This document shows, piece by piece, positions 564-2,603 of a DNA stretch of 59,965 nt. The translations under genes and the position numbers were made by a program. The stretch covers positions 78,141 to 138,105 of the forward strand of contig VGIW01000001.1 of the NCBI GenBank assembly GCA_016867715.1, given 5' to 3'. The notes under the pieces are model-generated. The model was not told the DNA's origin. It made no database searches and was given only the letters and a program-made list of their open reading frames with translations. Every line of letters begins with the position of its first letter. Position 1 is the first letter of the stretch. Origin of the DNA: Candidatus Eisenbacteria bacterium (lineage in GTDB: Bacteria; Orphanbacterota; Orphanbacteria; Orphanbacterales; Orphanbacteraceae).

Positions 564-1010
564 ATGAGAGGACAGAAGGGCTTCACGCTGATCGAGCTGA
601 TGATCGTCGTGGTCATCATCGGGATCCTCGCGGCGATCGCGATCCCGAACTTCGTCTCGATGCAGAGCCGCGCGAAGGAAGCGGGTGTGAAGGGGAACCT
701 GCACACGGTACAGCTGGGATTCGAGGACTTCAGCGTTCTGTCGGACGGCGTCTATCCGGTGAACGCGGCGAGCGTCTACGGGGGCGCGGGAACGACCCTC
801 GAGAGCCTGCTTCCGGATTGGGACGGGGTCGCGGGCGGCGACTTCCCGCGGAACCCGTTCGATGGGCTCGAGACCCCGTTCGCGTGGGGCGCGGCCGCGG
901 CGGGTTCGTCCGGCGCGTGCGCGGCGACGACCGCGTTGGTCGGCGGCTACGTTCTCGAGGCGCGTGGCAAGGACATCGCGACCTACATCCTCACGCTAAA
1001 AAACTCCTAA
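564..1010 (+). CDS. pilA: Type IV major pilin or GspG-like pseudopilin (PilA-like)
   Basis: This 148-residue prepilin starts with a six-residue basic leader ending in Gly, then the class III processing site and hydrophobic stalk ([19 protein letters not shown]), including the conserved Glu5. PilD-type peptidase would cut after Gly6. The stalk is followed by the typical pilin stretch [20 protein letters not shown] and a short globular head ending with a Cys-poor, Gly/Ala-rich region. The size and the [14 protein letters not shown] segment resemble short pilins of Geobacter-like and FCB bacteria. A frame upstream is open back to 300, but only this start gives a prepilin leader. The sigma-54 promoter and a terminator at 1122 suggest a single-gene unit. 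A GspG function cannot be excluded. Confidence 0.88.
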
Positions 1011-1179: not shown

Positions 1180-1649
1180 GCCACCCGCCGTGGGTGCGTT
1201 CTCGAATGGCGGGTGGCGGCGGCAGGAAGGGACGGATCCGATCCTGTGGGAACGGAAGGCTCCGGAGCCGAGGGGCGGGGCTCGCTTGCTCAAACATGCC
1301 GCGCGGGCCGCGGTCCTCACCCAAGTGTTCGTTCGTAGCGGGATCGGTGCGGCCCGCGCGGCAACTCGCCGCTCTGCCCCGCCCCCCGTCTCCGGAAGGA
1401 GACGGAGCGCGGGGTTCGGCTCCCGCCGTCAGACGGTGAGAGCACGGCGGGTGGCGGCCACGGGCGCCTGCTCGCGCGCAGGCCACCAAGTGCGTAGGCG
1501 CGACTGGCCGGAGCGCGAGCGGGCTGTGGCCGACACGACTGAGCCGGGGCTCCCCGTCGCGAAGAGCGACGGGGTGGCGAGGAAGCTCCTTCGCGCATGC
1601 GGCGCGAAGGAGTGACCCGCCGAACGAGAACGCAACCACGGCGGACGGC
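1180..1649. repeat. 470-bp imperfect palindromic element with multiple strong stems (possible structured RNA or MITE-like element)
   Basis: The ends 1180-1214 and 1615-1649 are inverted repeats pairing at 29 of 35 positions, including GTGGGTGCGTTCTCG (1190-1204) against 1625-1639 with one mismatch. Inside are a 14-bp perfect stem (1298-1311 with 1349-1362), an 8-bp stem with a GGAA tetraloop (1386-1405), a 9-bp stem (1552-1574) and an 11-bp stem (1586-1596 with 1602-1612). The 5' end can alternatively fold as a 10-bp local hairpin (1180-1189 with 1208-1217), and GGCGGGTGGCGGC recurs at 1446-1458. No open frame here looks like a protein. I could not match it to RNase P RNA, tmRNA, SRP RNA or 6S RNA. 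It may be a large non-coding RNA or a non-autonomous mobile repeat. Confidence 0.55.
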
Positions 1650-1661
1650 CCAGCTTGAAGG

Positions 1662-2603
1662 ATGAAGGAGCGTAGAGAGGTGATCCGACTCGACGGGGTC
1701 CGGAAGGTTTTTCGGAGCGACTTTCTGCGACGCAAGAAAGAAGTCCTTCGCGGTCTCTCGTTCCATGTGGAGCGCGGGGAGACCTACGCGCTTCTCGGTG
1801 AGAACGGGGCGGGGAAGACGACGACGATGAAGATCCTTCTCGGGCTCGTGCGCGCGGACGGCGGCTCCGCGATGATTGGGGGGATTTCATCGACGAATCC
1901 GGAATCCCGCCGCGGGCTCGGCTTTCTTCCCGAACATCCGTACTTTCTTCCACACCTCACGGGGGAGGAGCTCGTCCGTTACTACGGGCGCCTTTCCGGG
2001 CTTTCCGCCCGGGAGGCATCCGCCGCGACGGACCGCCTTCTCGCGCGCGTTCGTTTGGAGTCGGCGCGCGCGCGGCGCATCCGGACGTACTCGAAGGGGA
2101 TGCTCCAGCGCCTCGCTTTCGCGCAAGCCCTGGTCGCGGACCCGGAGGTTCTTGTCCTCGACGAGCCGCTCTCCGGGCTCGATCCGGTCGGAAGGAAAGA
2201 GATGCGCGAGCTTCTTTTGGACCTCAAGCGAAGGGGGACGACGATCCTCTTCTCCTCGCACATCATCGAGGACGTCGAGAAGCTCGCCGATCGCGCCGGG
2301 TTCCTTACGGACGGGGCGATCGGCCTCGAAGCGGACGGCGAAGGGAACGAGCGGATCGAGGTCTTCGCCGAGGGGGTGGACGCGGAAGCGGTGGCCGCGG
2401 CGGCGATCGAGGCGGAGAGGATCGCGAACGAAGGAGAGCGGCTTCTCATCACGCTCCGAAGTGAGAGGGACCTCCCTCGTCTTCGGGATCGGCTCCGCTC
2501 CCGCGGGGGACGAATCGTGCGCGTGGAAAAGCGGCGCGAGACCCTCGAGGATCTCTTCGTCGAGAACATCTTGTCCAGGCCCGGTGCGCGGGATCCGGTG
2601 TAG
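1662..2603 (+). CDS. ABC transporter ATP-binding protein (ABC-2 exporter type, NatA/GldA-like)
   Basis: This 313-residue ATPase has Walker A GENGAGKTT at about residues 46-54, an ABC signature in YSKGMLQRLAF near 147, Walker B VLVLDEP near 165 and a switch His in LFSSHIIEDVE. The C-terminal extension of about 90 residues is usual for ABC-2 partners. The permease follows after 11 nt, so the two form an exporter; its substrate is unknown. The start is uncertain: the SD-like GAAGG at 1657-1661 abuts the ATG at 1662, whereas GAAGGAG at 1664-1670 is well spaced for an in-frame GTG at 1680. It heads an operon continuing to 8574. Confidence 0.9.
   Translation: MKERREVIRLDGVRKVFRSDFLRRKKEVLRGLSFHVERGETYALLGENGAGKTTTMKILLGLVRADGGSAMIGGISSTNPESRRGLGFLPEHPYFLPHLTGEELVRYYGRLSGLSAREASAATDRLLARVRLESARARRIRTYSKGMLQRLAFAQALVADPEVLVLDEPLSGLDPVGRKEMRELLLDLKRRGTTILFSSHIIEDVEKLADRAGFLTDGAIGLEADGEGNERIEVFAEGVDAEAVAAAAIEAERIANEGERLLITLRSERDLPRLRDRLRSRGGRIVRVEKRRETLEDLFVENILSRPGARDPV

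What the first reader, a model, noticed from the sequence alone, without database searches (positions are those of the whole stretch)
1180..1649. 470-bp palindromic, multi-stem non-coding element
The ends pair at 29 of 35 positions, including a 15-base block with one mismatch, 420 bases apart. Between them lie perfect stems of 14, 8, 9 and 11 bp, one with a GGAA (GNRA) tetraloop. The 5' end also has an alternative 10-bp local hairpin. This is far more structure than a plain intergenic gap needs. It lies between a terminated pilin gene and an exporter operon. It could be a novel large structured RNA or a non-autonomous mobile repeat.
Basis: partly seen in the sequence, partly recalled or inferred. 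Interest (0 to 1): 0.7.

Follow-up and report, generated by a model that had tools for sequence, protein, structure and literature searches.

The report
Mosaic of swappable DNA hairpins
The 470-base palindromic stretch is one of about 40 scattered copies of a mosaic repeat built from interchangeable hairpin modules that sit in gaps just after genes; a sister species shares many of these gaps but has different hairpins in them, so this is a mobile-type repeat rather than a gene-specific RNA.

Summary
The structure is real: ends pair at 29/35 positions (maximum 21 in 5,000 random window segments) and the fold z-score is about -10 on both strands. It is not a single-copy RNA. Its own genome holds about 40 loci built from the same modules (X, Y, Z), joined by a palindromic linker in varying order and orientation. 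Copies are extragenic, close to gene 3' ends (median 20 bp; 162 bp to 5' ends), with no strand bias relative to genes. Module Y covaries strongly. A sister-species MAG has modules at many of the same slots, but different ones; where the module kind matches, the two copies are usually not closest relatives. Species-specific REP sequences, each flanking a RAYT gene of its own genome, sit in the same slots. Four more distant relatives lack the insert at the window locus.

Best reading: a large, multi-module BIME/REPIN-like mosaic of non-autonomous hairpin DNA whose slots persist while contents turn over. The enzyme moving X/Y/Z is unidentified: no RAYT gene examined is flanked by them, and target-site duplications could not be tested. 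New variant of a known kind.

The parts
1180..1214 (-). terminal linker (Lk) copy, inverted; left half of the long-range stem
   Evidence: Lk profile match on the - strand, E 2e-5; pairs with 1615-1649
1246..1435 (+). module Z with flanks; Z hairpin core is 1261-1312 plus 1355-1396; most other copies run straight from 1312 to 1355
1313..1354 (+). 42-nt extra apical loop of Z, bounded by the 15-bp stem 1297-1311/1349-1363; a similar long-tip Z occurs in L011
1422..1458 (+). internal linker joining Z to Y
   Evidence: 84% match to Lk
1446..1541 (+). module Y (variant Y2), multi-stem with conserved CCACCAAG/CGACTGG internal loop
   Evidence: profile and covariance-model match, 81 bits; covariation
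1537..1621 (+). module X, two hairpins (9 bp with GAAGA loop, 11 bp)
   Evidence: 98.8% match to X consensus
1615..1649 (+). terminal linker copy; right half of the long-range stem
564..1010 (+). upstream neighbour: type IV pilin-like gene ([13 protein letters not shown]...), 3' end facing the element
   Evidence: ORF; gene score; identity from the N-terminal sequence
1662..2603 (+). downstream neighbour: ABC transporter ATPase gene
   Evidence: ORF with Walker A GENGAGKTT; orthologues at the same place in relatives

Best explanation
The element is one slot of a dispersed, mosaic, non-autonomous repeat family that works like an oversized BIME/REPIN. Shown: it is assembled from interchangeable hairpin modules (X, Y, Z; a fourth, W, in other copies) joined by a palindromic linker; slots are extragenic and mostly beside gene 3' ends; many slots are shared by two sister species while module and REP content differ. 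Inferred: single strands, for example during replication, fold into hairpins; an HUH/Y1-type activity such as the RAYTs in these genomes inserts new hairpins into or beside existing ones; recombination at shared linkers swaps or deletes modules. Old slots would then be harmless landing sites whose contents turn over. RAYT action is supported by association for the REPs in the slots. For X/Y/Z it is a conjecture (about 0.4).
For: About 40 loci, shuffled modules. 38 of 39 extragenic by a home-made gene finder; median 20 bp to 3' ends, 162 bp to 5' ends. Y: 63 double-change cells against 29 in shuffles and 1-10 in slid controls. Window locus: four outgroups have about 500 bp less between the genes, the sister has Y-Lk without X. 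Same boundary with different interior at L016 and L023; slot table. Same-kind copies in a shared slot are usually not nearest relatives: Z ranks 1, 16, 7, 3, 14, 13 of 17. REP type a only in G000 and type b only in G001 among held DNA; each flanks a RAYT-like gene. 11 of 33 REPa loci lie within about 60 bp of a module (hand count).
Against: No RAYT gene examined is flanked by X/Y/Z/Lk. No target-site duplication or exact empty site was obtained; the outgroups are too diverged. X and Y2 vary only 1-4% between species, which could also mean constraint. Most G001 slots are seen from one side because contigs end in the repeat, and most of those contigs were fetched because they carry modules.
Confidence: 0.75

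Rival explanations
1. Fossil repeats reshuffled only by homologous recombination: the modules are dead miniature elements, and differing slot contents come from gene conversion and deletion between copies at the shared linker, without current transposition.
For: Modules join at a near-identical linker, and same-kind copies in a slot have been replaced by other family members; no partner transposase for X/Y/Z was found.
Against: REP types specific to each species have entered the same slots since the split, so insertion of some hairpins has occurred; X and Y2 copies are far less diverged than flanks.
Confidence: 0.3
2. A functional structured RNA family, for example mRNA 3'-end stabilisers or terminators, kept by selection at gene 3' ends.
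For: Compensatory changes in Y, location at gene 3' ends, constant internal loop.
Against: No orientation preference relative to the adjoining gene (11 same, 15 opposite; p 0.56); module identity is not kept at orthologous slots; not found in four family members.
Confidence: 0.1
3. A conventional MITE: an internally deleted insertion sequence with terminal inverted repeats moved by a DDE transposase.
For: 35-bp terminal inverted repeat, no convincing ORF, dispersed copies.
Against: The 'TIRs' are linker copies that also occur inside composites; many copies are single modules; the make-up is a mosaic, not a deletion series. A genome-wide search for an insertion sequence with matching ends was not made.
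Confidence: 0.08

Closest known systems
BIMEs (bacterial interspersed mosaic elements), as described in PMC2817692
   Same: Extragenic, palindromic units combined as mosaics in alternating orientations, high copy number.
   Different: BIMEs combine short REPs; here the units are 80-150 nt multi-stem modules, and X/Y/Z are not themselves the REPs of the RAYTs found.
REPINs with RAYT transposases, as described in PMC3116915
   Same: Non-autonomous hairpin DNA in extragenic space; REP types a and b in these slots flank RAYT-like genes of their own genomes.
   Different: No RAYT gene examined is flanked by X, Y, Z or the linker; modules are larger and several kinds are combined.
CGTC-tagged REPs, as described in PMC3733652
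   Same: Dispersed palindromic repeats reported to lack a dedicated transposase although RAYT genes may be present in the genome.
   Different: Those are single hairpins with 8-9-bp stems and a terminal CGTC tag; these modules are long and multi-stemmed and no terminal tag was established.

Membership tests
BIME | dispersed, multi-copy, extragenic | tested here: met
   about 40 loci; 38 of 39 outside coding by a home-made gene finder
BIME | mosaic of palindromic units in varying order and orientation | tested here: met
BIME | built from short REP units | tested here: not met
   modules X, Y, Z are about 86-100 nt and W about 147 nt; short REPs are present in some slots only
REPIN/RAYT | a RAYT gene in the genome | tested here: met
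   Y1_Tnp hits in G000, G001, G004; best NCBIfam match REP_Tyr_transpos, one above and three below its cut-off
REPIN/RAYT | the repeat flanks its RAYT gene (for X/Y/Z) | tested here: not met
   no X/Y/Z/Lk match in the RAYT loci
REPIN/RAYT | the repeat flanks its RAYT gene (for REP types a and b) | tested here: met
   REPa around L081, REPb around L077
REPIN/RAYT | excision intermediates or mobility observed | not testable with these tools
   needs population reads or assays
GTAG/CGTC-tagged REP | GTAG or CGTC at one end of the palindrome | tested here: inconclusive
   read by eye only; REPa shows no GTAG, and the linker contains CGTC internally without defined ends
MITE | terminal inverted repeats at the ends of each copy | tested here: inconclusive
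   present in the window copy, but formed by linkers that also lie inside composites
MITE | target-site duplication | not testable with these tools
   no close empty site was obtained; outgroup sites are too diverged
Rfam RNA families | match to a covariance model at the curated score | tested here: not met
   no match in the window; one chance-level match at E 0.76

The most novel reading that the evidence does not exclude
Genomes of this lineage keep fixed extragenic docking slots in which large folded hairpin cassettes (X, Y, Z, W and REPs) are exchanged by a dedicated, still unknown activity on single-stranded hairpins, so that slot positions are inherited while contents are replaced faster than sequences diverge.
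Probability: 0.25. Interest if true: 0.75.

Novelty: new variant of a known kind. Interest (0 to 1): 0.55.

Why it matters
The described REP families are short single hairpins of 20-40 bp (PMC3733652). Here 80-150-nt modules, one of them with clear compensatory changes, form mosaics whose positions are shared between species while the contents differ. That offers a natural experiment on how hairpin DNA moves and on whether RAYTs carry larger passengers. It also cautions that strong folding and covariation do not by themselves make a dispersed repeat a functional RNA.

Tried and rejected
Rfam: nothing. A weak module-Y match in unrelated genome G034 and one in G003 align poorly and were dropped. 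Model R1 was built with a mistyped structure and not used; R2 replaced it. Plasmid, phage and viral collections: no match. 'Insertion only at hairpin tips' was considered and dropped, because Z breakpoints are spread over the hairpin. A pooled flank query was built but not sent; single-locus queries were used. Literature searches found BIME/REPIN papers but no description of these modules. Species clustering of module copies was mixed: above all 300 shuffles for Y1, not for Z, X or Y2.

Full report
OBSERVATION. Random 470-bp segments of the same window reach at most 21/35 in 5,000 draws. Both strands fold far better than shuffles (RNA + strand z -9.6; DNA - strand z -10.8).

COPIES. A search of the window's own 3.5-Mb, 172-contig genome (G000) returned 68 matching pieces at about 40 places. 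This is probably a lower bound: 40 of 126 candidates were scored, and several copies sit at contig ends. The window holds no second copy. The pieces break into recurring blocks, which I call Z (1246-1435), Y (1446-1541), X (1537-1621) and a linker Lk (GACCCGCCGTCC...CACGGCGGGTGGC...), itself a palindrome. Profile searches show chains such as Z-Lk-Y and Y-X-Lk-Z, and inverted joins. A fourth module, W (about 147 nt), occurs in other copies.

RANGE. The modules are abundant in G001, the other genome of the genus in the set; Y alone occurs in G004 (4 copies); model R2 found none in G002, G003, G005 or G006. A pattern scan of the genome collection found the Y core only in contigs of 'Gemmatimonadetes bacterium isolate DeMMO4_6'; their lengths match G001 contigs (for example 12,664 and 10,315 bases), so I take G001 to be that MAG. 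Only seven genomes were held for the phylum, so absence further afield is weakly tested. Plasmid, phage and viral collections gave nothing.

STRUCTURE. In 16 Y copies from three genomes, 15 of 35 pairs show changes on both sides; 63 double-change cells against 29 in shuffles (0 of 500) and 1-10 when partners are slid. The outer stem exists in three complementary versions and the inner stem in several, while the CCACC(A/G)AG...CGA(C/A)TGG loop is kept in nearly all copies. The structure was derived from one of these sequences, which favours it in the slid control. In X, Z and Lk almost no pair shows a change on both sides, so covariation is shown for Y only.

LOCATION. A home-made dicodon gene finder placed 38 of 39 loci outside coding sequence; the exception is an antisense ORF over the window copy that I judge spurious. 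Distances to gene 3' ends have median 20 bp and to 5' ends 162 bp (p 8e-7); there are five convergent and one divergent gene pairs. Modules lie in either orientation relative to the gene whose 3' end they adjoin (11 same, 15 opposite; p 0.56), which argues against a strand-specific RNA as the reason for their spread.

SLOTS SHARED, CONTENTS NOT. At the window locus G003, G004, G005 and G006 carry the pilin and ABC genes with roughly 500 bp less between them, whereas G001 has a Y plus linker without X next to the ABC gene. Flanks of G000 loci were mapped onto G001 contigs, and 26 loci were tabulated with flank identities of 83-95% and nearly all with modules or REPs at the boundary. Most of those contigs were fetched because they carry modules, so this is not a rate. 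Six slots were queried without that selection: window, L016, L023 and L020 carry linker or module sequence in G001 with different neighbours; L041 and L045 showed no module in the stretch fetched. At L016 (GGCAG[A/G]GCTTCGGATC) and L023 (CCTGCCGCCGCC) the boundary is the same in both species while the interior differs. Where the module kind is the same, the two copies are usually not closest relatives: Z ranks 1, 16, 7, 3, 14, 13 of 17 and one Y1 pair 21 of 24; one X copy ranks first.

REP/RAYT. Species-specific REPs sit in the same slots. Type a (GGTACCTGATACC) was seen 17 times in held G000 loci and never in 445 kb of held G001 DNA (with some redundancy); type b (AACCAGGTTCCTTA) 41 times in G001 and never in G000. 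Type a lies around a RAYT-like gene of G000 (L081), type b around one of G001 (L077). The proteins best match NCBIfam REP_Tyr_transpos, one just above and three below its cut-off. Of 33 REPa loci counted, 11 lie within about 60 bp of a module match (hand count); the chance rate is not known, and assumed rates of 6-10% give p from 2e-6 to 2e-4. None of the RAYT loci is flanked by X, Y, Z or Lk.

INTERPRETATION. The simplest account is a BIME-like mosaic acting at DNA level: old extragenic slots of hairpin DNA in which modules and REPs are gained, lost and swapped. RAYT action is supported by association for the REPs and only conjectured for X/Y/Z. Gene conversion at linkers is a serious contributor and could be the main one. 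X and Y2 differ by 1-4% within and between the species while most flanks differ by 5-15%; recent spread, transfer between lineages and constraint were not separated.

LIMITS. Draft MAGs break at these repeats, so most G001 slots are seen from one side. Exact module ends, target-site duplications and expression are untested. The gene finder is approximate, and several counts (REP-module proximity, slot boundaries) were made by eye from tool output.

Noticed in passing
L083 1311-1431 (G000:C24): A RAYT-like gene of the own genome appears interrupted by a GC-rich hairpin stretch of about 120 nt that matches no module held.
   Followed up: partly
L033 1723-1869, L016 1831-1977, L040 1612-1756, L022 1205-1349, L043 1285-1430, L117 1232-1370: A further repeat module W of about 147 nt, in both G000 and G001, associated with the same slots.
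   Followed up: partly
L069-L072 (G004), downstream of module Y: The four Y copies of G004 are each followed by simple CGATAGCGATCCCGAT-like repeats, and at least L069 has REPs like those at the RAYT of G004 just upstream.
   Followed up: no
alignment A2, columns 46 and 61: In the constant internal loop of Y an A with C is replaced together by G with A in other copies, a possible non-canonical pair that covaries.
   Followed up: no
L113 474-843 and 1019-1408; also L114, L115: Outgroups G003, G005 and G006 show two pilin-like matches where the window has one, so pilin copy number differs at this locus.
   Followed up: no
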